The translations under genes were made by a program, and so were the position numbers. Shown here piece by piece: positions 609 through 17,006 of a stretch of DNA of 28,207 nt. Source of the DNA: a virus; IMG/VR virus record IMGVR_UViG_3300042549_010274, positions 1 to 28,207 of that record; one strand, written 5' to 3'. Below the pieces are notes generated by a model. It did not search any database. It saw only the letters and a program-made list of their open reading frames with translations, and was not told the origin of the DNA. Each line of letters starts with the position of its first letter. Within the stretch, counting starts at the first letter, position 1.

Positions 609-657
609 ACTCCAAGTGGAGTGGTACTACCTTACAACCTAGCGACAGACAAGTCAA
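609..657 (-). promoter_or_regulatory. Class A promoter with 5'-terminal hairpin for the Api92-like gene
   Basis: Read on the minus strand: -35 TTGACT (657-652), 17-base spacer, -10 TAAGGT (634-629). The predicted +1 near 622 coincides with the first base of a perfect stem-loop, stem ACTCC/GGAGT with loop ACTT (622-609). A GTAGTAGGAGG ribosome site follows. The same layout recurs before seven or eight other genes here. Confidence 0.65.
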
Positions 658-938
658 GCGTGCCGGTGCGCCTCTACGAAATCGCAGCTTGGCAAGAAGC
701 ACCACCCATCCGCAGCAGCTTGCTTGTCCGACATAAACGGCGGATGGAACTCACACTCGCAAGGAGCGCAGTCCAAGCAGTAGACGAGATAGCCGTCTGG
801 CACACTCCCCTCATACAGCTCGAAGTCAAGCACATCAAAGCGCGTGTACGGCATACCATTCCAAGTGCCGATGACCTTCTCGTCGGCGTAGAACACCATG
901 TCTCCGCACGCAATACACTTATCCATCTGGCCGCTCAT
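654..938 (-). CDS. Small cysteine-rich (zinc-ribbon-like) protein, 94 aa
   Basis: Begins MSGQMDKCIACGDM, so it has an early C-x2-C knuckle, and a second cluster C-L-D-C-A-P-C-E-C near residues 54-60, with further Cys and His toward the C-terminus. This suggests a zinc-binding fold, but no named family was recognised. The start at 938 is chosen over the internal Met because GGGGGAG sits 5 bases upstream; its ATG overlaps the TGA of the upstream gene (ATGA), so translation is probably coupled. The promoter for the Api92-like gene lies across its 3' end. Confidence 0.7.
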   Translation of the reverse strand: MSGQMDKCIACGDMVFYADEKVIGTWNGMPYTRFDVLDFELYEGSVPDGYLVYCLDCAPCECEFHPPFMSDKQAAADGWCFLPSCDFVEAHRHA

Positions 939-1501
939 ACTAGCTCCCCCTCATAGTCCACGATGCCCTTCTTGTAGCGAATCATTGCGTCGGCCTCGGC
1001 TTCTGCTTGGTCGTAGCCAATGATGCCGCCCAACGACTCCACGACTTCCCAAGTGTTCTCGTGCGAGTGAACGCCGCAATCAACCGACTTCTCCAAGATG
1101 ACGCAATAGACCTCGCCACGGAGAACGGAGTCTACGACGCTAATCTCGGATTCGGCCTTCGCCGCAAGCTCCTCCTCGGTATAGGAATCGCCAAGCCAGA
1201 ACTTTGCCTGTTCCTTCTCAATGACATAGAAGCCAATCTGCGCGGAATCCCACTTGTCGGTGAACGGCGCAAGGCTGATGCTCATGCCGGAGTGGGAGTA
1301 GCCATAAAGCTTATGGACATACACCGCATCTGCCGGTGGCGTGAAGGTCGCCGTATTCTCGTCATCGACCGGAAGCTTGACATCCCACGGGAAGCCGTAG
1401 TTTGCGGCCTTCTCTCCGGTATAGAACTGACCTGCGCGGTCGCCAAGGACATCGTAGCCGTCGGCTGTGTCCTGCTCGATTCGTGTCCTATGCTTATCCA
1501 T
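935..1501 (-). CDS. Conserved phage hypothetical protein, 188 aa
   Basis: Starts MDKHRTRIEQDTADGYDV and contains a central segment with GYSHSGMSISLAPFTDKWDS followed by AQIGFYVI. Proteins with a similar 'HSG-x-SIS ... F-x-D-x-WDS-x-Q-x-GF' signature are recurrent hypothetical proteins of phages and plasmids; I know no activity for them. No membrane segment or signal peptide. The start is supported by a TTGTAGGAGGCAGT ribosome site and by a class A promoter directly upstream (1520-1569). Its stop overlaps the next ATG by 4 bases. Acidic overall and likely cytoplasmic. Confidence 0.75.
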   Translation of the reverse strand: MDKHRTRIEQDTADGYDVLGDRAGQFYTGEKAANYGFPWDVKLPVDDENTATFTPPADAVYVHKLYGYSHSGMSISLAPFTDKWDSAQIGFYVIEKEQAKFWLGDSYTEEELAAKAESEISVVDSVLRGEVYCVILEKSVDCGVHSHENTWEVVESLGGIIGYDQAEAEADAMIRYKKGIVDYEGELV

Positions 1502-1519
1502 ACTGCCTCCTACAACAAT

Positions 1520-1569
1520 ACGGCAACTGCCGTGCTAACGATACTAGGGTATCGGTATTACCCTGTCAA
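1520..1569 (-). promoter_or_regulatory. Class A promoter with 5'-terminal hairpin (for 188-aa gene)
   Basis: Minus strand: -35 TTGACA (1569-1564), 17-base spacer, -10 TAGTAT (1546-1541). A perfect stem ACGGC/GCCGT with loop AGTT occupies 1533-1520, starting one base from the predicted +1 at about 1534. TTGTAGGAGG follows. This is the closest match to a sigma-70 consensus in the window. Confidence 0.75.
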
Positions 1570-1839
1570 CTACCTATCGGCAACCTGAAAGATAAGACGA
1601 CCGCCGCCGTTCATCTCGTCGTCTGCCGAGACAATCACCTCGAACTTGTCGCCGTGAATGTCCTCAATAATAAGAACCGGGAATGGGGGGAAGTAATCGT
1701 CGCCTTCCTCAACCCGGCCACCAATAATCCGCGCGCCGCGCAGCGGCTCAAGCATCTCACTGATGATGTAATGAACTTCCCGATCCTCTGGCAGAAGCTT
1801 CTCGCGCTCCTTCACTAGTGCGTCATGATTGACTTCCAT
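1570..1839 (-). CDS. Conserved phage hypothetical protein, 89 aa
   Basis: Small acidic protein beginning MEVNHDALVKEREKLLPED. The C-terminal half reads like a beta-rich domain with 'PFPVLIIEDIHGDKFEVIVS' followed by ADDEMNGGGRLIF; the last part resembles the 'S-x-D-x-E-G-N-G-G-G' signature of small phage proteins of unknown role. Start supported by GTAGTAGGAGG 5 bases upstream and by a class A promoter at 1861-1909. It stands as its own transcription unit between two promoters. Confidence 0.7.
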   Translation of the reverse strand: MEVNHDALVKEREKLLPEDREVHYIISEMLEPLRGARIIGGRVEEGDDYFPPFPVLIIEDIHGDKFEVIVSADDEMNGGGRLIFQVADR

Positions 1840-1860
1840 AACTTCCTCCTACTACTTCCT

Positions 1861-1909
1861 ATCCCAAGCGGGATCTATTTAGTATCTGGGTTGTCTATCA
1901 CCTTGTCAA
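1861..1909 (-). promoter_or_regulatory. Class A promoter with 5'-terminal hairpin (for 89-aa gene)
   Basis: Minus strand: -35 TTGACA (1909-1904), 17-base spacer, -10 GATACT (1886-1881, weaker). A perfect stem ATCCC/GGGAT with loop GCTT spans 1874-1861 and starts exactly at the predicted +1 (about 1874). The -35 lies inside the 3' end of the upstream 67-aa gene. Confidence 0.6.
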
Positions 1910-2078
1910 GTACGAAAGCGAACCGGTAGGCCGTCTTGCTCCTAGGCTTATGCGCATCCTGACAAGCTTCGCACACCCATGCCCCATAAGGGCTTGGTAT
2001 AAGACCATGCTTAACATTGTTCGGACACCTGGGGGCCGGGTCGCCCTGCCACTCGCTAGTTTTTTTCTTCACGCTCAT
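1875..2078 (-). CDS. Small zinc-ribbon-like protein, 67 aa
   Basis: Lys-rich N-terminus MSVKKKTSEW, then Cys at about residue 18 and a C-x2-C at about 35-38 (WVCEACQDAHK), giving a possible incomplete zinc site with nearby His. No family recognised. It overlaps the upstream gene by 23 bases and has only a weak purine-rich ribosome site (AAGAGA), so coupled translation is likely. The promoter of the next gene starts within its 3' end. Confidence 0.6.
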   Translation of the reverse strand: MSVKKKTSEWQGDPAPRCPNNVKHGLIPSPYGAWVCEACQDAHKPRSKTAYRFAFVLDKVIDNPDTK

Positions 2079-2292
2079 TCTCTTCGATTTTCTGTATTAC
2101 CCGGAGCATAAAATCGTCTCCGACTTCCCGCAGCTCTGCCGAGAGATCCTGATATACGCTATCGATAAAGTGCTCGCATGACTCCACTGACCAGTCCGGC
2201 CGCAACCGGCGAACATCCTGAACGCCAAAGTTGACGGTGATGGAAACCACCTGGAGGTTCTGCTTTACCTCGTCATCGCTCATCTCACTCAT
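2056..2292 (-). CDS. Small phage protein with DVxxLRPDWS motif, 78 aa
   Basis: Contains 'FGVQDVRRLRPDWSVESCE' near residues 23-41, followed by a helix ending in a charged tail. Similar 'DV-x2-L/R-P-D-W-[ST]' segments occur in many small phage proteins of unknown function. No metal motif or membrane segment. It overlaps the upstream gene by 8 bases and the downstream gene by 23 bases, typical of a tightly coupled operon. Confidence 0.65.
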   Translation of the reverse strand: MSEMSDDEVKQNLQVVSITVNFGVQDVRRLRPDWSVESCEHFIDSVYQDLSAELREVGDDFMLRVIQKIEENEREEKN

Positions 2293-2554
2293 TCACAATC
2301 ACCAAGCGGCAGTTATCGAACCCACGGGAGCACATCCCCGGCTCATGCGTATATGGCTCGGCAATAGTAGCTCCGCACGACAGACACCACTCCCCGCAAG
2401 GGCAGAAGTCATCTGACGCAAAGATCGGATAGGGCGCATTCCCTTCGTTGTCGAGCGCGGTTGAGGCAAGCTCGGCCCCGAACCGGGACTGGGCGCAGGG
2501 AACACAATTGACCGAACCCTCATAGGAGTAGGCCTGAACCTCCCACGCCTTCAT
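2285..2554 (-). CDS. Conserved small Cys-rich phage protein, 89 aa
   Basis: From the ATG at 2554 the protein reads MKAWEVQAYSYEGSVNCVPC, then DNEGNAPYPIFASDDF and two CxxC-like pairs (CPCGEWCLSC). The order 'aromatic strand, C-x2-C, D-x-EGN-x-(I/Y)P(V/I)F, C-x-C' matches a widespread small phage family of unknown function. A TTG four codons upstream (2566) is possible, but the ATG overlaps the stop of the 20-aa ORF (TAATG), which favours coupled initiation there. Confidence 0.7.
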   Translation of the reverse strand: MKAWEVQAYSYEGSVNCVPCAQSRFGAELASTALDNEGNAPYPIFASDDFCPCGEWCLSCGATIAEPYTHEPGMCSRGFDNCRLVIVNE

Positions 2555-2616
2555 TAAAAGAACCAACTAAACACAATAAAGAAAAACCAAATCCTCAAAC
2601 CAGTACCAATGTCCAT
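2554..2616 (-). CDS. 20-aa hydrophobic microprotein
   Basis: Translation from ATG at 2616 gives M-D-I-G-T-G-L-R-I-W followed by an almost purely hydrophobic half rich in Phe, Ile, Val and Trp. It has one of the best ribosome sites here (TAGGAGGAAGT before ATG), which itself contains the stop of the upstream gene. The stop overlaps the next ATG as TAATG. It could be a single-pass membrane peptide, or a leader whose translation opens the weakly signalled downstream gene. Too short for homology; the signals, not the sequence, support it. Confidence 0.5.
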   Translation of the reverse strand: MDIGTGLRIWFFFIVFSWFF

Positions 2617-2624
2617 ACTTCCTC

Positions 2625-2936
2625 CTACGGCTGTACGATTGTGGAGTCCGAGTATACCAGACCATACGATTCGGGGTCGTGGCCAATACGCGACTCAAGC
2701 TTTAGGGCCGGCATACTGACCTTCCTGATGCTCTCGCCACAGTCATGGCAACGAATCTCGGTAATGTCTGGGTAGGCGTACTCCTCGGGGTTCTGCTGAA
2801 CGGCAATCTGCGCTTTATCACCTTCGCCGATGATGGAGCAGACTACCTCAAGCAGCCCATAGAAGTAGATACCATCCCACCACTCATCGGACGCCCGGGT
2901 CTTGCCGGAGCAGCCCTTATGAAGATAGGCCTTCAT
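2625..2936 (-). CDS. Small zinc-binding-like protein, 103 aa
   Basis: Starts MKAYLHKGCSGKTRASDEWWDG, with an H-x2-C near the N-terminus and a C-x2-C (EIRCHDCGESI) at about residues 63-66, together a plausible H/C-C-C zinc site. The acidic middle and C-terminus match nothing I recognise. The ATG overlaps the upstream stop (ATGA) and an AGG-like site is weak, so expression is probably coupled. Confidence 0.65.
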   Translation of the reverse strand: MKAYLHKGCSGKTRASDEWWDGIYFYGLLEVVCSIIGEGDKAQIAVQQNPEEYAYPDITEIRCHDCGESIRKVSMPALKLESRIGHDPESYGLVYSDSTIVQP

Positions 2937-3184
2937 GATCCACGCTCTAGCTTGTGTGCTCGATCCGTGGCGTCCATGCCGACTCCGGTAAGACGCTGAA
3001 CCTCCGGGCCATCCCCTTCGGCCTCATAGAGCTTCAAGGCATCCCCAAAGGCGATACACGCATCAAGATACTCGCGCATAGCTTTAGGGTTATTCGTTAC
3101 TCGTGCCTGCTCAAAGGCATAGACGCCTCTCCCTGCTAGGAACCCTTCGAGCATGCCGTTCTGATACTTCTGTCCGGTCGCCAT
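2933..3184 (-). CDS. Small helical protein, 83 aa
   Basis: The start is placed at MATGQKYQNGML because GAGGAGG lies 6 bases upstream; a longer open frame (to 3268) has no ribosome site and overlaps the 31-aa gene. The protein is mostly helical, with no Cys, no membrane segment and a charged C-terminus ending AHKLERGS. Function not recognised. It lies between the 31-aa zinc microprotein and the 103-aa gene, and its stop overlaps the next ATG by 4 bases. Confidence 0.65.
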   Translation of the reverse strand: MATGQKYQNGMLEGFLAGRGVYAFEQARVTNNPKAMREYLDACIAFGDALKLYEAEGDGPEVQRLTGVGMDATDRAHKLERGS

Positions 3185-3185
3185 A

Positions 3186-3281
3186 CTAGACCTCCTCACA
3201 ATCGTGGCCATTAAACCACTCATTCGCTTCCTCTGTGTCAAGCAAATCAAACTGCCTGCCACACTCACCGCACCGAGCCAT
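3186..3281 (-). CDS. 31-aa zinc-finger microprotein
   Basis: First gene of the leftward operon, too short for most gene finders. It reads MARCGECGRQF at the N-terminus and ends NGHDCEEV, giving C-x2-C plus a distant H-x-C: the four ligands of a single zinc finger. GTAGTAGGAGG lies 7 bases before the ATG, and a class A promoter with hairpin lies directly upstream. The next gene's ribosome site overlaps its stop. Single-finger proteins of this size usually bind nucleic acid or protein; the partner is unknown. Confidence 0.65.
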   Translation of the reverse strand: MARCGECGRQFDLLDTEEANEWFNGHDCEEV

Positions 3282-3302
3282 ACCGGTACCTCCTACTACA
3301 CA

Positions 3303-3350
3303 CCCCAAGTGGGGCAGTGATACCATAGGGGATAGAGGGCCGGCCGTCAA
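3303..3350 (-). promoter_or_regulatory. Class A promoter with 5'-terminal hairpin for the leftward operon
   Basis: Minus strand: -35 TTGACG (3350-3345), 17-base spacer, -10 TATGGT (3327-3322). Stem CCCC/GGGG with loop ACTT (3314-3303) starts at the predicted +1 (about 3315). The two palindromic operators at 3361-3424 lie immediately upstream of the -35. Confidence 0.7.
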
Positions 3351-3360
3351 ACCTGGCGAT

Positions 3361-3424
3361 GGTTAAGACTCCTTAACCTGCCCAGCGTGCTGCCTGCGGG
3401 TCGATTTGGTTAAGACTGCTTAAC
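3361..3424. promoter_or_regulatory. Pair of palindromic operator-like sites
   Basis: GGTTAAGACTCCTTAACC (3361-3378) and GGTTAAGACTGCTTAAC (3408-3424) differ at one inner base; both are GGTTAAG/CTTAACC-type half sites around ACTC or ACTG. Their starts are 47 bases apart, and the nearer one is 11 bases upstream of the -35 of the leftward promoter. This is the geometry of a dimeric DNA-binding regulator's sites. Confidence 0.6.
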
Positions 3425-3932
3425 AATGCCCCAGTCTGGTATAGAGCTGGAGTAAAAGGCCGGAATAACCGCTAGAAATAACTTGCTGGCATAATAACTT
3501 GTGTGGTAAAGGGGCAGAATAACCAGGAATAGGGGGGTTTGGAGTGAAGGCATAAACGGCCTGGGATAACAGCCAGCGTGCAACCCCCACAGAAACCCAC
3601 TTCCACCCACCACCACCGTATCATCTTTAAGATTCCGCAACCAAACTGCCCACCGAACCCCAACTACAGCAAAGATGTTACCTAGCTAGGCAATAGCAGG
3701 TCATAGCACAGGCAGGGATACCAGTCCCCGGTACAGGAAGAATCAGCCATGATCGAATCTCTTCTCTCCTACTACAATCTCTTAGTGTTTCTCCTTCCCT
3801 ATGGAGCGTATACGGCGCCTGCCTCACGGCACCGTGACCCTCCTCTCACGACTCAGCCGCCTTCGGCGTCTTCGGGCCGAGCCTGAGGCTCACTGGCGTA
3901 GACAACCACAGAGCTGCGCAATGATACGACGG

Positions 3933-3947
3933 TGGTAGAATGCCTAG
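3933..3947 (+). promoter_or_regulatory. Class B (leaderless) promoter with extended -10
   Basis: TGG directly precedes -10 TAGAAT (3936-3941), an extended -10 signal; GCCTAG then separates it from the ATG at 3948 by exactly 6 bases, so transcription would start at or one base from the start codon. No Shine-Dalgarno precedes the ATG. Confidence 0.6.
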
Positions 3948-4061
3948 ATGGAAAAGCATATGGTTGAATACATGAGAGAAGTCTTCGATGAAAACCCCGT
4001 GTTGGTAGCATCTACGCTTGCCGGCATTGTAATCGGCTGCGTGCTGGCGCTAGCAAGCTAG
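3948..4061 (+). CDS. 37-aa single-pass membrane microprotein
   Basis: The N-terminal half (MEKHMVEYMREVFDEN) is charged, and the second half (from about Pro17) is one continuous hydrophobic segment with small residues, ending LALAS. This fits a small membrane protein with its tail inside the lipid. It is the first gene of a rightward unit and is likely leaderless. The next gene's ribosome site (TAGGAG) overlaps its stop codon, so it may share a role with the following membrane protein. No family recognised. Confidence 0.6.
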   Translation: MEKHMVEYMREVFDENPVLVASTLAGIVIGCVLALAS

Positions 4062-4071
4062 GAGATACGCT

Positions 4072-4638
4072 ATGGCATACATATTGCGCAAGTTCTCTGA
4101 AGAACTGATTGTCGTCCTGCTGATTGGCCTTGTCTCGACTACTACCGCCTGGACAGCGATCCAAGCGTCTTTCCATAACAACGCATCTTCTGCCGCCTAT
4201 GGCGACTACCAGCTGATTATCGCTGACGCGAATAATCTGTGGATCACGGCAGAGGTCAAGTACCGGGCCGACCTGCTGGCCTGGGACACCGGCCTTGGTG
4301 GCTCATATGAGTTCAGCGTGTACGCGGTGCCGTGCCAGACCAAAATCTTCCCCGCGACCCAACTGCCAGACTGCGCGGAGTATATGGACGCCGTGTATGG
4401 CCCATATAACGAGATGTATAACAGCGGAGACGAACCCCTTGCGCTCTCTGAGCTTGAAGGCGGCTACAGCAACCGACTACAGGTACTCACGGGCATCTTT
4501 GCCGTTGCCCTGTTTGCCCTGGGTGTCACCTCTCCGATGAAGAGCCGGAAGAACGCCTCGTACCTTGTGGCGTTTGCCGCAGTCCTGTGGGTGGTTGGCA
4601 TTGGCCTGATGGTCACAATCCCCATTATCTTGCTGTAA
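4072..4638 (+). CDS. DUF4337-like membrane protein, 188 aa
   Basis: One N-terminal membrane helix (about residues 12-32, with 'VSTTTAWTAIQASF' just after), a middle soluble domain of about 100 residues containing two Cys, and two C-terminal helices (about 138-155 and 165-187). The N-terminal 'LIGLVSTTTAWTAIQASFHNN' portion resembles DUF4337-type proteins, in which the helix is followed by a Tyr-rich helical region. Function of that family is unknown. Start supported by AGGAG 7 bases upstream. It follows the membrane microprotein and precedes a conserved soluble phage protein, so it may form an envelope-directed phage function. Similarity is suggestive only. Confidence 0.7.
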   Translation: MAYILRKFSEELIVVLLIGLVSTTTAWTAIQASFHNNASSAAYGDYQLIIADANNLWITAEVKYRADLLAWDTGLGGSYEFSVYAVPCQTKIFPATQLPDCAEYMDAVYGPYNEMYNSGDEPLALSELEGGYSNRLQVLTGIFAVALFALGVTSPMKSRKNASYLVAFAAVLWVVGIGLMVTIPIILL

Positions 4639-4647
4639 GGAGAGGGT

Positions 4648-5301
4648 ATGTCATACGTCATTGCAAATATCCCGCCGATTGCCTGCTACGTCCGCAAGGA
4701 GTACCTGCGCGACTTACAAGACAGCCACGGAGAATTCACTCCTGCCTATTGGGTAACCGTCAAGGCAATCCGCCACCGCGCCCTATACATTGAGGCATTC
4801 CTCCCAGAGTACGGCGCCCTGTACGACAAGCTGCCGATCAGCGCCTTTGTCTGGAGGCCGGAGACCCCAAGCCCCGACTTGAAGCTGGGTGACCTGCAGC
4901 TCTGGGACGCTATCTCCCCCCAGCTGAGCGTGATCGAAAAGGCCGTGCTCAAGAATATGCGGTGTAAGTTCCGAACCCCGGCAGGCATATGGGGAGAGGG
5001 GCACTACCTCTTCACCGTTGACATGGTACATACTGACCCGAACGAGATCGACGCAAACTGGGCGCGTGTTCCCTCTGAGCATAAGTCCTATAACTTTATC
5101 CGCCTAGACAACGGGCAATTTGCCGCCCAGCCAAACAACCGGGTGCTGTGGCTTGATGAGGCTATTGTGGCAAAGGAGCCAAAGATGCCGAACTTTAAGG
5201 TCAGCACCAAGGAGTTCTCGGCTGAGGGCGGCCGCTGGGGCCTGGGTGACGAAGACTCGTGGACATATGAGCCGGCGCAAAATAAGGAGAAAGCCAAGTG
5301 A
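4648..5301 (+). CDS. Conserved phage protein of unknown function, 217 aa
   Basis: Soluble protein that reads MSYVIANIPPIACYVRKEYL at the start, then 'HGEFTPAYWVTVKAI', 'FLPEYGALYDKLPISAFVWR', 'LQLWD' and 'NGQFAAQPNNRVLWLD' in order. This succession is a well-conserved hallmark of a widespread hypothetical family in phages from aquatic samples; no activity is assigned. No catalytic motif is evident to me. Start supported by AAGGAGAGGGT upstream. It ends in a Lys-rich tail, and the next small gene overlaps its stop by 4 bases. Confidence 0.8.
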   Translation: MSYVIANIPPIACYVRKEYLRDLQDSHGEFTPAYWVTVKAIRHRALYIEAFLPEYGALYDKLPISAFVWRPETPSPDLKLGDLQLWDAISPQLSVIEKAVLKNMRCKFRTPAGIWGEGHYLFTVDMVHTDPNEIDANWARVPSEHKSYNFIRLDNGQFAAQPNNRVLWLDEAIVAKEPKMPNFKVSTKEFSAEGGRWGLGDEDSWTYEPAQNKEKAK

Positions 5302-5531: not shown

Positions 5532-5560
5532 TTGACAGTCTGTTTACGGCCTGATACCGT
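5532..5560 (+). promoter_or_regulatory. Class A promoter for the rightward zinc-ribbon operon
   Basis: -35 TTGACA (5532-5537), 17-base spacer, -10 TACCGT (5555-5560). Predicted +1 is near 5567, at the start of a long structured leader. It drives the genes from 5717 on. Confidence 0.7.
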
Positions 5561-5566
5561 TCCTCT

Positions 5567-5716
5567 TGTACCCACCGGGGAACATCAACAACCGGGGAAA
5601 AGAGATGCGAGTCTCTGCTCTCGGAAGTAGAGCGGTTCACCATAACCCGGTGGGGCAGTTGTGTCGGTTGAGGCGGGACTCCTACCCCGTCTCCCGATAC
5701 CTTAGTAGGAGGTGCT
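5567..5716 (+). ncRNA. Structured 150-nt mRNA leader with Shine-Dalgarno-complementary loop
   Basis: By eye the leader folds in two domains. Domain 1: CCCACCGGG (5571-5579) pairs perfectly with CCCGGTGGG (5646-5654), closing a junction with AACCG/CGGTT (5590-5594/5633-5637), AGAGA/TCTCT (5601-5605/5612-5616) and GCTCT/AGAGC (5617-5621/5629-5633). Domain 2: GTGTCGG/CCGATAC (5661-5667/5694-5700) stacked on GAGGCGGG/CCCGTCTC (5670-5677/5686-5693), with loop ACTCCTAC. The loop's CTCCTAC (5679-5685) is fully complementary to the ribosome site GTAGGAG (5705-5711). It therefore looks like a cis-regulatory RNA. Fold and control are inference. Confidence 0.6.
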
Positions 5717-6733: not shown

Positions 6734-7287
6734 GGATTCGACTTCGCCCGGCGTACTCAGATGCCGACTTAGCCAAGCTTTATCAGGTGCCGCACCAGCA
6801 CGCCCAGTGGGAGGATCACATCCTTAGGGTAAAGATGACCATTGCGCTGGCTTCGTATTTCCCCAACGTCAAGACCATTGCCGACCTGTCTGCTGGAGAC
6901 GCGGCGATCATCAACGCTATACACGCGGAAAAACGGTACATTGGGGACTTTGCCCCGGCCTATGAATTTGTAGGGCCGATTGAAAAAACCATTCACGAGA
7001 TCCCTAATGTCGATCTCTTCATTTGCTCAGAGACCGTTGAGCATTTAGACAACCCAGACGAGGTCTTGGCAATGATTAGCAAGAAAGCAAAGCACCTGAT
7101 TCTTTCTACCCCGGTTGGGGAGATGAACGACCAGAACCGAGAGCATTACTGGGGCTGGGACCACGAGGGCGTGCGCGAGATGCTTTTGGCCTCTGGGTTT
7201 GCCCCCAAAGCGTTTGCCAACTTCAGGATAATGGGTATGGGCTACATGTATCAAGCCTGGGCGTGTGACTCAAAGCAAAGGATTTGA
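6730..7287 (+). CDS. Class I SAM-dependent methyltransferase-like protein, 185 aa
   Basis: GTG start overlaps the preceding stop (GTGA). The fold is suggested by 'TIADLSAGDAAI' (motif I-like, about residues 55-66, with D-x-S-A-G-D in place of the classic glycine loop), the acidic strand 'NVDLFICSETVEHLDNPDEV' near 97-116, and 'LILSTPVGE'. The SETVEHL...P segment is the usual motif IV-like region of methyltransf_11/23 proteins. Substrate unknown; in phages these proteins act on sugars, lipids or nucleotides as well as DNA, and there is no DPPY/NPPY DNA-adenine motif. Last gene of the first leader-controlled operon. Confidence 0.75.
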   Translation: MRIRLRPAYSDADLAKLYQVPHQHAQWEDHILRVKMTIALASYFPNVKTIADLSAGDAAIINAIHAEKRYIGDFAPAYEFVGPIEKTIHEIPNVDLFICSETVEHLDNPDEVLAMISKKAKHLILSTPVGEMNDQNREHYWGWDHEGVREMLLASGFAPKAFANFRIMGMGYMYQAWACDSKQRI

Positions 7288-7334
7288 CAGGCTGATAGCC
7301 ATACCCTAGGATGAACATAACGGGGTTTTCCCGT
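7284..7334 (+). promoter_or_regulatory. Class A promoter with 5'-terminal hairpin for the 137-aa gene operon
   Basis: -35 TTGACA (7284-7289) overlaps the methyltransferase stop; 17-base spacer; -10 TAGGAT (7307-7312). Hairpin ACGGG/CCCGT with loop GTTTT (7320-7334) begins at the predicted +1. TAGTAGTAGGAGG follows. Confidence 0.75.
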
Positions 7335-7354
7335 GTAGTAGTAGGAGGTAGAAG

Positions 7355-11490: not shown

Positions 11491-11955
11491 CTATCGGCCT
11501 TTCTTGCGCTTTGAGCCACACGTTGGGCAGACATCCCCATCAGGAGACTCATCTGCGTTCAGCTTAGAGAGAAGTTTCTGTATGTCATCCTGGTCAAACG
11601 CTGTGTCAAGCAGGTAGCTGCCGGCGTCTGCTTCCTGGAGCAAGGCTAGCAGCGCGTGATCGTTCCAGCTGGCAAGCTCCGCCGTTTTATTATCCGCAAG
11701 CAGAATTGCCTTGGCCCGTTCATCGTCACAGTCAACCCAGAATACTGGCACCTCTTTTATCCCGCAGATTTTTGCGGCCTGCAAGCGGTGGTTGCCCGCC
11801 AGGACGTAGCCTGTCGACTTTTGCACGACAAGGGAGCCGAACCAGCCATTCTGCCGAATGCTAGTGACAATGGCCCCTATGTCGCCTTCTCGTGGGTTAT
11901 CCGGGTGCAGCGCAAGGCTATCAACCGGCTCTATGCTAACTGGGAGATTGACCAT
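11491..11955 (-). CDS. ParB/sulfiredoxin-fold nuclease-like protein with C-terminal CxxC, 154 aa
   Basis: It opens MVNLPVSIEPVDSLALHPDN and runs 'NPREGDIGAIVTSIRQNGW', 'VLAGNHRLQAAKICGIKEVP', 'AKAILLADNKTAEL'. This is the ParB N-terminal (ParBc/Srx) domain: D-N-P-R ... I-x-x-S-I-x-x-N-G ... G-N-H-R. The GNHR box binds nucleotide in ParB-like proteins; the residues needed are present. The DNA-binding helix-turn-helix domain of plasmid ParB is absent, and the C-terminus has a CPTCGSKRKKGR ribbon tip instead. Typical phage ParB-like nuclease or NTP-binding protein. GGAGGG precedes the ATG. Confidence 0.8.
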   Translation of the reverse strand: MVNLPVSIEPVDSLALHPDNPREGDIGAIVTSIRQNGWFGSLVVQKSTGYVLAGNHRLQAAKICGIKEVPVFWVDCDDERAKAILLADNKTAELASWNDHALLALLQEADAGSYLLDTAFDQDDIQKLLSKLNADESPDGDVCPTCGSKRKKGR

Positions 11956-11987
11956 GGGCCCTCCGTATGATACGCTCTTGGTAGGTG

Positions 11988-12029
11988 ATGCTTACTTATA
12001 AGCATACCTGAGCTAGGAAAAATAGCCAA
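11988..12029 (-). promoter_or_regulatory. Promoter of the ParB-like/HELAH pair with operator over the -10
   Basis: Minus strand: -35 TTGGCT (12029-12024), 17-base spacer, -10 TATGCT (12006-12001). The palindrome ATGCTTACTTATAAGCAT (11988-12005) covers the -10 and the start site, so a dimeric repressor bound here would block the polymerase. Confidence 0.55.
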
Positions 12030-12049
12030 CTGGCAAACCGGCTACGCTG

Positions 12050-12077
12050 TAGACAAATCATGAAGATGTAGTAAAAT
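12050..12077 (+). promoter_or_regulatory. Promoter for the double-psi beta-barrel gene
   Basis: -35 TAGACA (12050-12055), 16-base spacer, -10 TAAAAT (12072-12077). GAGGAGG follows at 12083, so the leader is short and no hairpin is visible. Confidence 0.5.
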
Positions 12078-12094
12078 CGCATGAGGAGGCCCAG

Positions 12095-12793
12095 ATGAAG
12101 CCACAGGCACACAGAGCTCATCGACGATTTTTGACAGTGCTCGTTGTGTTGGCCGTGGCTACGGGAATCCTTTCCTCAGTGGGTTCCTGGAATCAGCCAG
12201 AACCCGCCCAGGAGCCACCGGTAGAGGTCTTTTACGACCAACCCCCTGTCCCTACCAGTAGGCCGCAGAGCTGGGACGCTAAGTGGGACAACGCCATTCG
12301 AGTCAACGGCTTCGGAACGCGCTATGACGCCTACCAGCATGCCGGCTCTTGGTACGACGCCCCCAAGACGTGGGTGTATGCAAACAGGAAAGAGTGCGCT
12401 AAGCGCCCAGAGTGGAGGTGCTACCTTCGAGAGATGGGCGGGTGGAAGGCAAGCGTGCGCCCTTGGGGGACCACCCTAAAGAACATGTACGCCGCCCTTG
12501 GGCCGCTATTGCGCAAGCGCCTTAATCTCCCAGCCTGGCACACAGTGCCCACCCAAAAGCTACTTATCATCTCGGCACACACAGGGAAATCTGTTGAGGT
12601 GTGGATTGCCGACTACTGCGCCTGCCACGGCGCAGACAGGAAGCAGGGAACGCGAGATGATAGCCTGATCGATCTGAGCCCAGAGGTGTGGGCAGCATTG
12701 GGGGCGTTCAAGGGCGGGAAGATTCCTGGGTGGCCGTACGCCAACACAACCCCAGGATTCAAGAACACCATTGAGGTTCGCTTTATCCCCTAA
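12095..12793 (+). CDS. Membrane-anchored RlpA/expansin-like double-psi beta-barrel protein, 232 aa
   Basis: A basic N-terminus (MKPQAHRAHRRF) precedes one membrane helix (about 12-29), then a Pro-rich linker (35-60). The exported domain contains C101, C109, C175 and C177. 'VEVWIADYCACHGAD' followed by 'LIDLSPEVWAALG' is the core of double-psi beta-barrels: a V-x-V/I-x-D strand and the D-L-S-x-(5)-L helix seen in RlpA and expansins, whose Asp is catalytic in lytic members. The likely place of action is the cell wall. It may help degrade or remodel peptidoglycan, or alter the host surface; there is no cleavable signal site or lysis partner nearby. GAGGAGGCCCAG precedes the ATG. Confidence 0.7.
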   Translation: MKPQAHRAHRRFLTVLVVLAVATGILSSVGSWNQPEPAQEPPVEVFYDQPPVPTSRPQSWDAKWDNAIRVNGFGTRYDAYQHAGSWYDAPKTWVYANRKECAKRPEWRCYLREMGGWKASVRPWGTTLKNMYAALGPLLRKRLNLPAWHTVPTQKLLIISAHTGKSVEVWIADYCACHGADRKQGTRDDSLIDLSPEVWAALGAFKGGKIPGWPYANTTPGFKNTIEVRFIP

Positions 12794-12844
12794 TTGACGC
12801 CTGCCAAGGATGAGCGTACTATTGTTTGGTAGAAGAAATCTCTT
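12794..12844 (+). promoter_or_regulatory. Class A promoter for the 123-aa winged-helix gene
   Basis: -35 TTGACG (12794-12799), 17-base spacer, -10 TACTAT (12817-12822). A weak four-pair stem AAGA/TCTT with loop AATC (12833-12844) lies near +5. TTAGTAAGGAGG follows. Confidence 0.6.
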
Positions 12845-12860
12845 AGTAAGGAGGCTTAGT

Positions 12861-13232: not shown

Positions 13233-13243
13233 CGTGTTATAGT
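13215..13243 (+). promoter_or_regulatory. Class A-type promoter of the tRNA-like leader
   Basis: -35 GTGACG (13215-13220, inside the 3' end of the previous gene), 17-base spacer, -10 TATAGT (13238-13243). The predicted +1 falls at 13249-13250, the first or second G of the tRNA-like element. Confidence 0.6.
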
Positions 13244-13248
13244 CCCCT

Positions 13249-13320
13249 GGGGCCGAGTAAACGCCAAAGGTCATCATGCCCGAGGGTAACGGCGGGTGTA
13301 ACTCCCGCCCGGCTCCACCA
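13249..13320 (+). ncRNA. tRNA/tmRNA-like acceptor and T-arm element in mRNA leader
   Basis: 72 bases that start GGGGCCG (13249-13255) and end CGGCTCC-A-CCA (13310-13320). The two ends form a seven-pair acceptor-like helix with a G3-U70 wobble, discriminator A and encoded CCA. Directly inside is a T-arm-like hairpin, GGCGGG/CCCGCC (13291-13296/13304-13309) with seven-base loop TGTAACT. The 35 bases in between do not form a normal D arm or anticodon arm, so this is not a standard tRNA; the ends most resemble tmRNA. CTCC (13313-13316) can alternatively pair with GGAG of the ribosome site (13323-13326). Confidence 0.55.
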
Positions 13321-13331
13321 AAGGAGAAGGA

Positions 13332-13556
13332 ATGCCAACTTACGACTACAAGTGCGCAAAGTGCGATATCGTCCGAGAGACCGTCCGCAAGATGAGCGAC
13401 GACTCTAAGGAGCTATGCCTTGTCTGCAGTGGTGAGATGCGCGTCGTTTTCAACGCCCCAAAAATTACCTACAAAGGTTCCGGTTGGGCTTGGCAAGAAA
13501 AAATACCGCAGGAGACTCACGTGATTATGGGCGCTGATCCTTCAAAGAAAGACTAA
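13332..13556 (+). CDS. FmdB-family zinc ribbon protein, 74 aa
   Basis: Opens MPTYDYKCAKCDIVRETVRK and carries C-x2-C at 8-11 and a second C-x2-C (LCLVCSGEM, about 33-36), then 'FNAPKITYKGSGWAWQEK'. This is the CxxC_CxxC_SSSS (FmdB) zinc ribbon: M-P-x-Y-(D/E)-Y-x-C, second CxxC, and the F-K-G-S-G-W end. Members are small putative regulators; activity is largely unknown. AAGGAG follows the tRNA-like element's CCA, so its translation may be controlled by that fold. Confidence 0.85.
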   Translation: MPTYDYKCAKCDIVRETVRKMSDDSKELCLVCSGEMRVVFNAPKITYKGSGWAWQEKIPQETHVIMGADPSKKD

Positions 13557-13884
13557 TCTCTCGGCCTAGGTCAAACATCGCCGCGCCCGGAGTTGAGCCA
13601 CGACCAATAAAAGATACGATTTCCCCAACGTGATTTTCTGGAAATCCTTCAGCCACCCAATGAGGTTCTTTATTGTCGCTGTGCGGCCAGTAAAAAATCT
13701 GCACCGAGGGAAGCTCGCTGTTCTTACCCCAAGCCTGCTCGAATGCTCGCCATCCGCACTCAAGGCAGTGTTCAGCATCTGTCGGCAAACCGTACGTCCG
13801 CAGACCATCCGGACCCTGGATTACCGCAGCTGAATGCAGGCACTCCGCTTTTTCACTTATCAATTTCAACTCCCGTGAATCCAT
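13525..13884 (-). CDS. Hypothetical protein with CxxC, 119 aa
   Basis: Start at 13884 (MDSRELKLISEKAECLHSAA) with GGGGACGGGGA upstream; the frame runs further upstream without a ribosome site. It has C-L-H then 'HCLECGWRAFEQAWG' (C-x2-C), a probable zinc site, and a C-terminal 'VGEIVSFIGRGSTPGAAMFD' segment. It converges on and overlaps the FmdB gene by 32 bases, which is unusual, but the protein composition looks real. No family recognised. Confidence 0.55.
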   Translation of the reverse strand: MDSRELKLISEKAECLHSAAVIQGPDGLRTYGLPTDAEHCLECGWRAFEQAWGKNSELPSVQIFYWPHSDNKEPHWVAEGFPENHVGEIVSFIGRGSTPGAAMFDLGREISLSLKDQRP

Positions 13885-13923
13885 TCCCCGTCCCCCGTCG
13901 CCCTTCGCCCCAATCCCCCCCAA

Positions 13924-14213
13924 AAAGTTCTTGGACTGCGCATCCTACACCACGAAAGATCGGAGTGCCAACTTTGCGTGTGTCCTGCTTAAAAAAATAA
14001 AACGCGCCCAAATTTGAGCACAAAAAGCACTTGTTCCCTCCCAAGAGAACTAGGCCCCAAACACAAAGGTAGTTACTAACAAATACTATTCCCCAGAACC
14101 CAGAGTCCCTGAGCCCCCATCCCCCCCTCTCCTTAAAGGTTCTCCCCCCCTTCCCCAAAACAGGCCACAACAAAAAGTTGCACAGAGCTGACTTCGTGGA
14201 GTATGATCCCGGC
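13924..14213. other. Intergenic region, C-rich, with leaderless promoter at its end
   Basis: Nearly 290 bases with long C runs (14112-14160) and no convincing ORF; a long minus-strand frame here is low complexity and rejected. At the right end, TTGCAC (14178-14183), 18 bases, then -10 TATGAT (14202-14207) and exactly 6 bases (CCCGGC) precede the ATG at 14214. Confidence 0.6.
14178..14213 (+). promoter_or_regulatory. Class B (leaderless) promoter of the first glycosyltransferase gene
   Basis: -35-like TTGCAC (14178-14183), 18-base spacer, -10 TATGAT (14202-14207), then 6 bases to ATG. No Shine-Dalgarno lies in range, so a leaderless mRNA is implied. Confidence 0.6.
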
Positions 14214-15029
14214 ATGGGAAATAAAAAGCAACGGAACAAAGACCAAAAGGCAGACCAGCCCCCCAAGGCCTCGCCCTTATCTTTGTATTCGGTCACGCCA
14301 ATTATCGACGGGAAGGTGAACCACGGATACGTGCATTCGCTCCTGGGGATTCAGCAAGCCTGCTTAACTGTTGGCGTGCCATTCTCCTGGTCGTTTGTCA
14401 TCGGCAACTCCATGCTGGTTGCAGCTCGGAACCGGTGCGTCGCGCAGTTCATGGATGAAACAAAAGCTACCCACATGCTGTTTCTCGATGCTGACATTTC
14501 AGTGCATTGGGAAGATGTCATGATGGCAATGATTGCGGACAAGGACATAGTGGCGCTGCCATGCCTTAAGCGAGCCATTGACTGGGACCGAAGTGTTGGG
14601 ATGATGCGCAAGCATCCGGAGGTTTCTGCCGAAGCAATTCAGGGAGTCCTTGGTATGCCAAACTTTGTGTTGGACCCCGCCGCACCATATCCCACAAAGC
14701 AGGATGAAGAGCTAGGCCTGCTTGAGGCCACGCACGCTGGGACCGGGGCAATGATTATCTCGCGGCGAGCTTTCGAGAAATACCAGAAGGCCTTTCCGGA
14801 CCGCTGGTACCTTGAGGATGTCGGCAGCGTGACCCATCGAACAGTTGAGTATTTTCGTTACGGCCGGCGAGATAATCACTTCATTGGTGAGGACTACACG
14901 TTTTGTGACGACTGGCGATCTATCGGTGGTAAGATCTATGTCAAGTTGAATGCTCGGTCGACACATGCCGGCCAAGTCAACCTAAAGTACGACCTGGAAG
15001 CCCTTAGGGCTCTAGCTCGAGAGGAGTAA
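14214..15029 (+). CDS. Glycosyltransferase-like protein (GT-A fold), 271 aa
   Basis: A basic N-terminal tail of about 20 residues precedes 'SVTPIIDGKVNHGYVHSLLG'. 'GNSMLVAARNRCVAQF' (about 64-79) and 'THMLFLDADIS' (D92-x-D94) provide the nucleotide-sugar and metal-binding elements of a GT-A fold, and 'FIGEDYTFCDD' gives the acidic G-E-D motif expected near the catalytic base. The same order occurs in the paralogue at 15243. Such proteins are widespread in phages; they could decorate the host wall, phage DNA or virion proteins. Substrate unknown. Confidence 0.75.
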   Translation: MGNKKQRNKDQKADQPPKASPLSLYSVTPIIDGKVNHGYVHSLLGIQQACLTVGVPFSWSFVIGNSMLVAARNRCVAQFMDETKATHMLFLDADISVHWEDVMMAMIADKDIVALPCLKRAIDWDRSVGMMRKHPEVSAEAIQGVLGMPNFVLDPAAPYPTKQDEELGLLEATHAGTGAMIISRRAFEKYQKAFPDRWYLEDVGSVTHRTVEYFRYGRRDNHFIGEDYTFCDDWRSIGGKIYVKLNARSTHAGQVNLKYDLEALRALAREE

Positions 15030-15030
15030 C

Positions 15031-15243
15031 ATGGAAGTCGCACTATTTATTGGCGGAACACTTTTTGGGGTTCTTATCGGCTCGGTAGCTGGGTTTGGTT
15101 CGGCCATGCCAAGGATTGAACAAGCCCGGCAAGAAGGGTTCATGATGGCATTTGCAAACTTTGCTGAAGCAGCTCAAAAGGCTATGGAAGAGCAGAAGAC
15201 AAAGGGCGCCGGATTCACCTCAAGCCACAAGAAGACAAACTAA
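15031..15243 (+). CDS. Single-pass membrane protein, 70 aa
   Basis: N-terminal membrane helix (MEVALFIGGTLFGVLIGSVAG, with GxxxG spacing), then an amphipathic helical part and a basic C-terminus (SSHKKTN). GAGAGGAG precedes the ATG and overlaps the end of the previous gene. It sits between the two paralogous glycosyltransferase-like genes; anchoring one of them at the membrane is an attractive idea but is only inferred from position. Confidence 0.65.
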   Translation: MEVALFIGGTLFGVLIGSVAGFGSAMPRIEQARQEGFMMAFANFAEAAQKAMEEQKTKGAGFTSSHKKTN

Positions 15244-16040
15244 TGCCGGCAAAGAAGTACCCTAAGCTAATGTTGGCAACGCCAACCCTAGACGGGCGCG
15301 TGTCGGCAGAGTATGCACAATCTTTGTCGGGGCTAAAGACGGCGCTTTATCAAAGCAGCATCAATTTTTCTATGCAGCTGCACATTGGCAATTCGCTGCT
15401 TGCTGGGGCGCGAAACCATTTAGCAGACGACTTTCTTAGGAGCGAAGCTGACTGGCTGCTCATGGTTGACTCTGATATTGCATACCGGCCAGAGGATGTC
15501 CTTGCGGCGTTGCCACACTTGGAAGACGCAGTAATTGGATTTCCGTGCTCAAAGAAGTTTGCCAAGTGGGATCGCGTTGCTAAGACCCTTCGGGACAACC
15601 CAGACTTTCCGGCAGACGGAATCCCCGCCATTCTTGGAGATGCAAACTTTCACCTTGGGGTTAGCGATTACCTTCGCCCAAATGATTATGGCCTGGCAAA
15701 GGTCAAGTGGATCGGCACCGGTGTGATGCTTGTAGCAAGGAGCACACTGCAAAAGATTATGGCAGACAACCCGGATGACAAGACCATGGTGAACGGAAAA
15801 ATCATTCACGAGTTCTTCCGGTACGACATGGAGTGGGCCGAAAAAGATGGAGTAAAATACAAAGACTACGCCGGAGAAGATGTATCTTTTTGCAACCTTG
15901 CAAGGAAGTCCGGATTCAAGGTGTACGCAAAGCTTGACGCGCTAACAACGCATGTTGGGTTTAGCTTGTACCGCTTTGATGCTACGGCAGTAGCTCGTCT
16001 AAAGAACGTTCCAAGCCAGCTGGAATCGCAGAAGAAGTAA
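15243..16040 (+). CDS. Glycosyltransferase-like protein (GT-A fold), paralogue, 265 aa
   Basis: It shares the layout of the 271-aa protein: 'LATPTLDGRVSAEYAQSL', 'HIGNSLLAGARNHLADDFL', a DxD-type 'WLLMVDSDIAYRPEDVL' (D76, D78), 'WIGTGVMLVARSTL' and 'YAGEDVSFCNLA', ending with 'FKVYAKLDALTTHVG'. All presumed key residues are present. Tandem duplication with later divergence is likely. ATG overlaps the stop of the membrane gene (TAATG). Its 3' end overlaps the convergent minus gene by 59 bases. Confidence 0.75.
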   Translation: MPAKKYPKLMLATPTLDGRVSAEYAQSLSGLKTALYQSSINFSMQLHIGNSLLAGARNHLADDFLRSEADWLLMVDSDIAYRPEDVLAALPHLEDAVIGFPCSKKFAKWDRVAKTLRDNPDFPADGIPAILGDANFHLGVSDYLRPNDYGLAKVKWIGTGVMLVARSTLQKIMADNPDDKTMVNGKIIHEFFRYDMEWAEKDGVKYKDYAGEDVSFCNLARKSGFKVYAKLDALTTHVGFSLYRFDATAVARLKNVPSQLESQKK

Positions 16041-16476
16041 CCCGGGCCTCTTTTAGGGGATAGGCGTATACAAGCCAGTCTGACCTAATCTCTCGACCAG
16101 GAAGGTCCTCCCCTTCAATAATAGGTATGTAAGCGCAAACATTTGGGAGCTTTGATAGTTCCCGCAGTGCCTCATGCGCCTTCTCCCTGGTTGTCTCAAG
16201 GATTTGATCAGGCTTGGGTATAAGGCCGATCTTTGACCAGCCAATCATGTGCTCAGAAACGGCATCGCCAAAATCAAGGGCAACAATCATTGGCTGGGGG
16301 AGTATTACCGTTGTGAACTCTTCCTCTGCGCGGATTCCCAAATTATGCAAAATAAAAGAAACGCGCTGCTTGCTAATGCCCATCATCCTGCCAATCTCGT
16401 TGGCGGTATAGCCGTCTAAGAAAAGCTCGCCGATTTCTAGGTTCCGCTCGACCTTAATGCCCTTACGAACAGTCAC
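15982..16476 (-). CDS. Helix-turn-helix protein with unknown C-terminal domain, 164 aa
   Basis: GTG at 16476 is chosen because TGGAGG lies 6 bases upstream; ATG at 16500 is an alternative. 'RNLEIGELFLDGYTANEIGR' followed by 'MMGISKQRVSFILHNLGI' is a sigma-70 region 4/ Sigma70_r4-like helix-turn-helix near residues 11-48. The remaining 110 residues hold 'PMIVALDFGDAVSEHMIGWS' and may be a ligand or partner domain, unlike any I know. It overlaps the glycosyltransferase gene convergently by 59 bases, so expression of the two may interfere. Confidence 0.65.
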   Translation of the reverse strand: MTVRKGIKVERNLEIGELFLDGYTANEIGRMMGISKQRVSFILHNLGIRAEEEFTTVILPQPMIVALDFGDAVSEHMIGWSKIGLIPKPDQILETTREKAHEALRELSKLPNVCAYIPIIEGEDLPGREIRSDWLVYAYPLKEARVTSSAIPAGLERSLDELLP

Positions 16477-16633
16477 CGCACGCCTCCACAGACCCTTCAT
16501 GCTCCGGGCACACAAAGAAAGCAATCAAGCAGACTTCACATAGGCGGGAGACAAGGTGCTCGGCGCACGGGTCGCCACAGCCCTCATCTTTCCACTCAAG
16601 GTCGTCCAGGGTCACTTCTGTTCCTGTGGTCAT
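16463..16633 (-). CDS. Cys-rich zinc protein, 56 aa
   Basis: ATG overlaps the upstream stop (ATGA). Translation gives MTTGTEVTLDDLEWKDEGCG, then C-x3-C, C-x2-C, C-x2-H and a final C-x2-C, with ligands C19, C23, H26, C32, C35, C42, H45, C52 and C55. Two or three zinc ions could be held. It overlaps the start of the helix-turn-helix gene. No family recognised. Confidence 0.6.
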   Translation of the reverse strand: MTTGTEVTLDDLEWKDEGCGDPCAEHLVSRLCEVCLIAFFVCPEHEGSVEACGDCS

Positions 16634-16815
16634 GAGCACTTCTTGTGTCTGTGGATGTAACGCTTAGTGGCCGAGCCGGCCGCGCTAATAACAATTGACA
16701 AAATAGTAGTAATTTCATTAGAAAACATAGGCTTGTCGCAAGACGCGCAGCGTTGGCCGGTCAGGGCCGGAGCCTTTTTCTCTTTGCTTACCGAAGTTTT
16801 ACCTTTTGGTGCCAT
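16630..16815 (-). CDS. Small basic protein with one CxxC, 61 aa
   Basis: Start at 16815, MAPKGKTSVSKEKKAPALTG, preceded by GGAGGAGCT. One C-x2-C (QRCASCDKPM) and a later Cys near a basic H-R-H-K-K-C end could complete a zinc site. A hydrophobic stretch (36-47) is too short and polar to be a sure membrane helix. First gene of the three-gene minus island; preceded by a long structured leader and a class A promoter. Confidence 0.6.
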   Translation of the reverse strand: MAPKGKTSVSKEKKAPALTGQRCASCDKPMFSNEITTILSIVISAAGSATKRYIHRHKKCS

Positions 16816-16971
16816 AGCTCCTCCAGTATTGGCGGAGGGCAGCAATTACGGCCCGGCAGTTCGTCCGTCGACGTACCTTGGCCAATTACTCACCCAACCG
16901 ACTGGGTTGAACCCCCCGCCTCACCTTGGATCAACGTCCAAGGGCGCCGTATCGCGGTCGGAAGGCGATAC
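16816..16971 (-). ncRNA. Structured 156-nt mRNA leader
   Basis: On the minus strand, three perfect hairpins follow one another: GTATCGC/GCGATAC (16971-16949, starting at the predicted +1), CCTTGGA/TCCAAGG (16943-16924) and ACCCA/TGGGT (16907-16892). Near the end, CCTCC (16838-16834) can pair with GGAGG (16824-16820) of the ribosome site, hiding it. Translation control by folding is inferred. Confidence 0.55.
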
Positions 16972-17006
16972 CAAACCAAAGTACCGATACCAATAGTCTG
17001 GGTCAA
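16949..17006 (-). promoter_or_regulatory. Class A promoter with 5'-terminal hairpin for the minus island
   Basis: Minus strand: -35 TTGACC (17006-17001), 17-base spacer, -10 TACTTT (16983-16978). The seven-pair hairpin at 16971-16949 begins exactly at the predicted +1. Confidence 0.6.

What the first reader, a model, noticed from the sequence alone, without database searches (positions are those of the whole stretch)
609..17006. Recurring promoter design with an RNA hairpin placed at +1
At six sites (609-657, 1520-1569, 1861-1909, 3303-3350, 7284-7334, 16949-17006) a -35 near TTGAC(A/T/G) or TTGACC, a spacer of exactly 17, and a -10 are followed by a perfect 4- to 7-pair hairpin whose first base lies within one or two bases of the predicted start of transcription. 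The sequences of the stems differ completely (ACTCC, ACGGC, ATCCC, CCCC, ACGGG, GTATCGC), while the position and, in five, the small NNTT-type loop are kept. That is covariation in structure. 12794-12844 is a weaker seventh case. 5'-terminal stem-loops are known to protect mRNA from 5'-end-dependent decay in bacteria; here the phage appears to have built one into every accessory-gene promoter. A recognition role for a phage RNA-binding protein is also possible.
Basis: partly seen in the sequence, partly recalled or inferred. Interest (0 to 1): 0.82.

Follow-up and report, generated by a model that had tools for sequence, protein, structure and literature searches.

The report
Phage promoters with 5'-end RNA hairpins
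A group of uncultivated bacterial viruses starts many of its small-gene messages with a tiny RNA hairpin placed where transcription should begin, and its shape is conserved although its letters are not; it probably shields the start of the message from decay, but this has not been tested in cells.

Summary
Five of the six sites (657-, 1569-, 1909-, 3350-, 7284+; named by first -35 base and strand) are one module: TTGAC, 17-base spacer, -10, a 4-5 bp hairpin at predicted +1/+2, a linker, a strong Shine-Dalgarno and a start codon. The 82.5 kb sister record (identical over the window) has 13 on the minus strand and one on the plus strand. In related uncultivated phages 110 of 253 nonredundant promoter leaders have at least 5 Watson-Crick pairs there, against 5.0 +/- 2.3 in shuffles. 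Stems change on both sides; single inner non-Watson-Crick pairs are 16 G.U, 0 A.C, 6 other; 58 of 64 distinct tetraloops fit RNYU. Orthologous genes that keep the promoter nearly always keep the hairpin. Site 16949-17006 is the first helix of a different, larger leader, and 12794 is not conserved, so 'every accessory promoter' is wrong. Best reading: a 5'-terminal stabilising stem-loop (about 0.5). The constrained loop suggests an added recognition role. No 5' ends are mapped and the host is unknown.

The parts
609..657 (-). Module A: -35 TTGACT (657-652), spacer 17, -10 TAAGGT (634-629), +1 hairpin ACTCC[ACTT]GGAGT (622-609); SD 601-592, ATG 587
1520..1569 (-). Module B: TTGACA (1569-1564), spacer 17, TAGTAT (1546-1541), hairpin ACGGC[AGTT]GCCGT (1533-1520); SD 1515-1506, ATG 1501
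1861..1909 (-). Module C: TTGACA (1909-1904), spacer 17, GATACT (1886-1881), hairpin ATCCC[GCTT]GGGAT (1874-1861); SD 1854-1845, ATG 1839
3303..3350 (-). Module D: TTGACG (3350-3345), spacer 17, TATGGT (3327-3322), hairpin CCCC[ACTT]GGGG (3314-3303; with a basal G.U pair 3315-3302); SD 3298-3289, ATG 3281
7284..7334 (+). Module E: TTGACA (7284-7289), spacer 17, TAGGAT (7307-7312), hairpin ACGGG[GTTTT]CCCGT (7320-7334); SD 7339-7348, ATG 7355
16949..17006 (-). Not the same module: TTGACC-17-TACTTT, then a 7 bp hairpin with a 9-base loop that is the first helix of a longer leader reaching an SD near 16824-16818
12794..12844 (+). Rejected seventh case: promoter TTGACG-17-TACTAT with SD, 4 bp hairpin not at +1 and not conserved

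Best explanation
The five sites are copies of one compact expression cassette used by a group of uncultivated tailed phages: a sigma-70-type promoter whose transcript starts at a purine that is itself the first base, or one base before the first base, of a short G+C-rich stem-loop, followed by a linker and a strong ribosome-binding site. Shown from sequence: the position relative to the -10, conservation of pairing with changing stem sequence, and the joint presence of hairpin and promoter. Inferred: that RNA polymerase starts there, that the hairpin folds in the cell, and that by leaving at most about one unpaired base at the triphosphate end it slows removal of pyrophosphate and 5'-end-dependent attack by host RNases (RppH with RNase E, or RNase J, according to the host), so that these messages live longer and are translated more.
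For: Peak of hairpin starts 6-7 bases after the -10, with a purine at base 6 in 209 of 253 leaders and T before it in 110 of 253, the usual look of a start site. 110 of 253 leaders with >=5 WC pairs against 5.0 +/- 2.3 shuffled, largest 13 of 500. Changes on both sides in orthologous promoters, e.g. gene E ACGGG/CCCGT to GCGGG/CCCGC, gene C ATCCC/GGGAT to ACGGC/GCCGT. Among distinct RNYT-loop stems with exactly one non-WC pair in the inner four: 16 G.U, 0 A.C, 6 other, with A and T about equally common in both arms of the perfect ones, so pairing is on the transcript strand. First 22 nt fold at -6.1 to -8.5 kcal/mol at the five sites. That 5' structure stabilises mRNA because RppH and RNase E rely on single-stranded 5' ends, and that a 5' hairpin stabilised bla mRNA, was seen in passages of PMC3997798.
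Against: No mapped start site, half-life or host. A plain 5' block needs no special loop, yet 58 of 64 distinct tetraloops fit RNYU. Not all promoters of these phages have it: other promoters of the window use long leaders. In gene A orthologs L069, L074 and L075 the hairpin is present without a promoter I could recognise at the right place. At site 1569 the best 75-nt fold lacks the 5' hairpin. PMC3997798 also says that some mRNAs are not affected by sequestering the 5' end.
Confidence: 0.5

Rival explanations
1. The hairpin is a recognition element: a phage or host RNA-binding protein reads the RNYU loop on a stem at the 5' end and so marks, activates or shuts off this set of messages, as coat or repressor proteins do on other phage RNAs.
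For: Loop far more constrained than stem sequence: 58 of 64 distinct WC tetraloops are RNYU; hexaloops TGCTTG, TGATTG, TACTTG and TAGTTG (10 distinct hairpins) are the same loop on a U.G pair. In G005 7 of 8 hairpins at 19.4-25.3 kb have tetraloops of the NNYT kind and 0 of 8 at 13.2-19.0 kb, as two regulons might.
Against: No binding protein identified. Other loops (GACTT, ARRTG, 9-base loops) occur at the same place in the same genomes. In L065/L111 the loop types are interleaved. The loop could be needed for folding alone.
Confidence: 0.3
2. The hairpin mainly helps translation: it sequesters the first bases so that the linker and Shine-Dalgarno stay open, or acts as a standby or insulating element.
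For: A strong SD follows in the set by definition, mostly 6-12 bases after the hairpin; mean unpaired probability of GGAGG 0.40-0.80 at the five sites.
Against: The hairpin's place is tighter relative to the -10 than to the SD. The comparison is soft, because the set was chosen with both elements within limits.
Confidence: 0.12
3. The inverted repeat works as DNA, as an operator at +1 for a repressor or activator.
For: It is a palindrome at +1; a few relatives also have long inverted repeats around the -10 (L010 near 14767; L030 near 5109 and 7172; read by eye). Just outside the maximal stem, G.U (59, expected 26) and A.C (17, expected 7.3) exceed base-frequency expectation by the same factor, so that count does not favour RNA.
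Against: Stems differ from promoter to promoter in one genome, which one DNA-binding protein would not read; inside the stem single non-WC pairs are 16 G.U and 0 A.C (33 and 10 by a looser count), an asymmetry that DNA would not give.
Confidence: 0.05
4. Chance, or copies of one ancestral module without selection on structure.
For: Records are related and modules may spread by duplication; counts are of strings, not independent events.
Against: Shuffles, position profile, the broken-arm scan (41 stretches for the pairing pattern, 1 for the same pattern with the 3' arm reversed), and differing stems with retained pairing.
Confidence: 0.03

Closest known systems
5'-terminal stabilising stem-loops of bacterial mRNAs (papA, engineered bla: passages and reference titles seen in PMC3997798; ompA recalled)
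   Same: Short stem-loop at or next to the 5' end, followed by an open leader and ribosome site; sequence of the stem not essential to the idea
   Different: Here one design recurs at up to about 15 promoters in a stretch, with a preferred RNYU loop and fixed spacing to the -10; stabilisation not measured
SAS/ESAS elements of cluster K mycobacteriophages (passages seen in PMC3203893, PMC11373665, PMC12699233)
   Same: Repeated element at many small-gene starts, joining SigA-like promoter, inverted repeat and ribosome-site motif
   Different: SAS has a fixed 13 bp sequence and ESAS 17 bp repeats with a sequence consensus; the 2011 paper says that departures do not generally support RNA pairing. 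Here sequence varies and pairing is kept
Cluster M mycobacteriophage intergenic elements (Bongo; sequence seen, the paper is recalled and not held)
   Same: By eye, stems that vary between genes upstream of the ribosome site, in an array of small leftward genes
   Different: No TTGAC promoter with SD was found in the 50 kb of Bongo scanned, so position relative to +1 is not comparable
T7 gene 10 leader stem-loop (recalled)
   Same: Stem-loop beginning at +1 followed by a strong ribosome site
   Different: T7 RNA polymerase promoter, fixed sequence

Membership tests
5'-terminal stabilising stem-loop | Stem-loop with at most a few unpaired bases at the 5' end | tested here: inconclusive
   Met for the predicted start; no start is mapped
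5'-terminal stabilising stem-loop | Structure, not stem sequence, is conserved | tested here: met
5'-terminal stabilising stem-loop | Lengthens mRNA half-life through 5'-end-dependent decay | not testable with these tools
   needs infected cells or reporters
Cluster K SAS/ESAS | 13 bp GGGATAGGAGCCC at gene starts | tested here: not met
   1 match with 2 mismatches in the window (5676-5688, -) against 0.59 expected, not at a module start
Cluster K SAS/ESAS | 17 bp inverted repeats with a sequence consensus, pairing not kept | tested here: not met
   4-8 bp stems with free sequence and kept pairing; definition from PMC3203893
Intrinsic terminator | G+C-rich hairpin followed by a T run | tested here: not met
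   Each of the five is followed by a TAGTAGGAGG-type SD and not by a T run (read)
N4-type hairpin promoter (recalled) | Hairpin upstream of +1 read by the virion RNA polymerase | tested here: not met
   Hairpins start at predicted +1/+2, downstream of sigma-70-type -35 and -10
DNA operator repeats | Sequence shared among sites for one protein | tested here: not met
   151 distinct hairpins among 242

The most novel reading that the evidence does not exclude
A phage structural 'cap': these phages mark a set of their messages with a 5' hairpin carrying an RNYU loop that a dedicated protein (phage or host) reads, so that phage messages are spared or selectively translated while other RNA is destroyed; in G005 two loop types would then be two timing or regulator classes.
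Probability: 0.22. Interest if true: 0.85.

Novelty: new variant of a known kind. Interest (0 to 1): 0.62.

Why it matters
5' stabilising stem-loops are, as far as I know, described one gene at a time. Here a phage group appears to use one as a standard part at up to about 15 promoters in a row, giving a natural library of more than 100 distinct hairpins at one fixed place. That allows direct tests of what a 5' hairpin must have (stem, loop, distance from +1) and offers ready promoter-leader parts. The constrained loop gives a handle on a possible new RNA-binding regulator.

Tried and rejected
Terminator, N4-type promoter, operator and SAS/ESAS readings were considered and set aside (membership table). 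Loop pairing with the linker or SD was considered by eye and dropped: loops ACTT, AGTT and GATT would need different partners and none is constant. MAFFT alignment of 50 of 76 chosen tetraloop leaders (list) misplaced the stems because the letters share too little, so no covariance model was built; ungapped counts were used instead. Those ungapped sets were chosen for having a hairpin, so their pair tables describe them and are not tests of its existence; the tests are and 79/81. The looser count of 242 of 299 has no shuffle of its own. Host: WhiB was absent in 17 of 17 records, which does not exclude an actinobacterial host; tblastn in cultured phages gave distant or partial matches or none; one genome scan gave one Vibrio contig, 35% identical. 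Module D has no ortholog test, because my query for its second gene was out of frame (0 rows); its relatives are seen only. Control phages are few: hairpins of >=5 bp at 0 of 11 promoters in SPO1 1-24 kb and 1 of 10 in Pumpernickel 1-50 kb (>=4 bp: 1 and 2), and no qualifying promoter in Bongo 30-80 kb; with the looser SD of that script the window gives 9 promoters, 6 with >=4 bp, one of them in coding sequence (25112).
Full report
WHAT THE WINDOW IS. The window is a 28,207-base virus record. It lies at 100% identity inside an 82,523-base IMG/VR record, G001, at 2977-31183. It has a terminase and no megablast match among 50,697 phage records for its first 8 kb. tblastn of the terminase and of the portal finds only relatives below 30% identity in the rows shown. 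The host is unknown.

THE OBSERVATION. Five share every element: TTGAC, 17-base spacer, a -10 with A at position 2 and T at position 6, 6-7 bases, a 4-5 bp perfect hairpin, a linker, a TAGTAGGAGG-like SD and a start codon. Four have an NNTT tetraloop (ACTT twice, AGTT, GCTT); 7284 has GTTTT. Of six window promoters with a strong SD and start, five have the hairpin; no shuffle in 20,000 reached five. Short folds of the first 22 bases give -6.1 to -8.5 kcal/mol for the five and -0.9 for 12794; in the longer fold of 1569 another structure wins.

RELATIVES. Scans with genes next to the modules gave related IMG/VR loci (11, 11, 48 and 16 loci, with overlap). Promoters were defined without reference to hairpins (TTGAC, spacer 16-18, -10 with at most three mismatches, SD and start). 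Among 299 distinct strings, hairpins of at least 5 WC pairs begin 6 or 7 bases after the -10 in 47 and 74 cases, against 0-7 at each position outside 5-8. A purine stands at base 6 in 209 of 253 nonredundant leaders, so base 6 is most likely +1 and the stem begins at +1 or +2. 110 of 253 have 5 or more WC pairs against 5.0 +/- 2.3 in 500 shuffles, largest 13. With at least 4 WC pairs and one internal G.U or A.C allowed, 242 of 299 have a hairpin (no shuffle for this rule). Of 48 loci found through gene A, 34 hold at least one such module and 31 at least three. The 14 without are 11 loci at 37% identity or less and three at 46-49% (L069, L074, L075), which keep a gene A hairpin but no promoter I could recognise. 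In L076, L066 and L078 all 15, 15 and 14 called plus-strand promoters of one stretch carry a hairpin. In G001, 13 lie on the minus strand at 77.1-82.5 kb and 0.4-6.3 kb and one on the plus strand at 10.3 kb, so the window holds one end of an array. One further hit of that scan (28088) is window 25112, in coding sequence, and I discount it.

ORTHOLOGS, NOT CHOSEN FOR HAIRPINS. Gene A: 19 sites with promoter and hairpin, 1 promoter only, 8 no promoter, of 28. Gene B: 10 of 10. Gene C: 12, 2, 12 of 26. Gene E: 10, 1, 3 of 14. The phage's own copy is one row for each gene. Three of the 'promoter only' sites (L076, L089, L116) have the hairpin starting one base earlier than the limit; the fourth, L075, has a misplaced promoter call and does carry GCGGG[GATGT]CCCGC. 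One positive in gene C (L077) is a spurious call in coding sequence. Stems change entirely between orthologs: gene A has ACTCC, GCTCC, GCGGG, GCAGGG, GCCGC and GTCC with matching 3' arms; gene B keeps ACGGC in close relatives and has GCGGG in distant ones. Gene F (12794): 4 of 8 with promoter, none with a hairpin at +1. Gene D was not tested (frame error).

RNA OR DNA. Among distinct stems of four pairs on an RNYT loop, 40 are perfect and 22 have one non-WC pair: 9 T.G, 7 G.T, 0 A.C or C.A, 6 other. In the perfect ones A and T are about equally common in both arms (9-10 each), so base composition does not explain it. A looser count over 151 hairpins gives 33 G.U and 10 A.C, many at the basal pair. 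Just outside the maximal stem both kinds exceed expectation alike (59 against 26; 17 against 7.3), so that count is neutral. A DNA palindrome would not favour G.U inside the stem.

THE LOOP. Of 64 distinct WC tetraloop hairpins, 62 begin with a purine, 61 end in T and 58 fit RNYT; five-base loops include GACTT seven times among 25. This is more than a plain 5' block needs. A second loop type, longer and purine-rich, is found in G005 at 13.2-19.0 kb (8 of 8), while 7 of 8 at 19.4-25.3 kb are NNYT tetraloops. In L065/L111 the types are mixed, so the two-block view is not general.

BREADTH AND CONTROL. A scan of all viral contigs for the promoter followed by CGGGGCTTCCCG gave 41 stretches, with CCCCACTTGGGG 18, and with the 3' arm of the first reversed (CGGGGCTTGCCC) 1. 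Of the 48 loci newly numbered there (L128-L175; many from contigs already seen), 43 hold at least one promoter with SD and hairpin and 5 none. Cultured controls with sigma-70-like promoters: 0 of 11 in SPO1 1-24 kb and 1 of 10 in Pumpernickel 1-50 kb with 5 or more pairs; among the distant loci L097, L098, L099, L103 and L106, 1 of 16.

WHAT DOES NOT BELONG. 17006: the ~150 bases after this promoter are kept at 92% in L115 and 83% in L117, where the hairpin stays with one G.U; in L113 and L114 only the part after the first arm aligns. 12794 is rejected above. 5532, 11948 and 13232 are other promoters with long conserved leaders. So the genome has at least two leader designs.

MECHANISM. The position ties the hairpin to the 5' end; the wobble asymmetry ties it to RNA; the free stem sequence ties it to structure. 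From known biology (PMC3997798, passages), RppH and RNase E rely on single-stranded 5' ends and 5' hairpins stabilise some mRNAs but not others. Protection from 5'-end-dependent decay is therefore the most likely use, at about one half. The loop constraint is the main fact it leaves unexplained, and it keeps a recognition role open.

LITERATURE. I saw no description of this architecture in the listings of searches, which cover open-licence PMC papers only and of which the best-ranked rows are shown. Passages were read in PMC3203893, PMC12699233, PMC11373665 and PMC3997798. The cluster M phage paper, which I recall as describing repeated regulatory sequences, is not held, so overlap with it cannot be excluded.

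Noticed in passing
13249-13320 (+): A 72-base tRNA-like RNA: 7 bp acceptor-like stem ending in ACCA and a T-arm-like hairpin; ARAGORN finds no tRNA in the window, Rfam gives only a weak tmRNA match (10.6 bits, gathering 47). The 146 bases around it are 83-98% identical in six relatives, with by eye a two-sided change in the T-arm-like stem of L115.
   Followed up: partly
5532-5712 (+): Promoter TTGACA-17-TACCGT followed by a conserved leader of about 135 bases with several inverted repeats, ending in a TAGTAGGAGG SD; no Rfam match up to E 1.
   Followed up: partly
16818-16971 (-): Leader of about 150 bases after promoter 17006, with by eye a possible pairing of the first loop (CCGAC) with a downstream GTCGG; no Rfam match up to E 1.
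   Followed up: partly
11948-12095 (+): Promoter-like TTGACC-17-TACGCT, hairpin ATGCTTACTTATAAGCAT 11 bases after the -10, and a leader to the gene at 12095 that is 96% and 87% identical in two relatives.
   Followed up: no
L010 near 14767; L030 near 5109 and 7172: Some module promoters in relatives also carry, by eye, long inverted repeats flanking the -10, which could be DNA operators of the ESAS kind.
   Followed up: no
4648-5301 (+): Gene of PHROG 3704 (listed as ferredoxin; annotated among others as PurM, ferredoxin or hypothetical in cyanophages and pelagiphages), up to 53% identical.
   Followed up: no
3186-3281 (-): The first gene after module D is a 31-residue peptide with three cysteines, two of them in a CGEC pair.
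   Followed up: no
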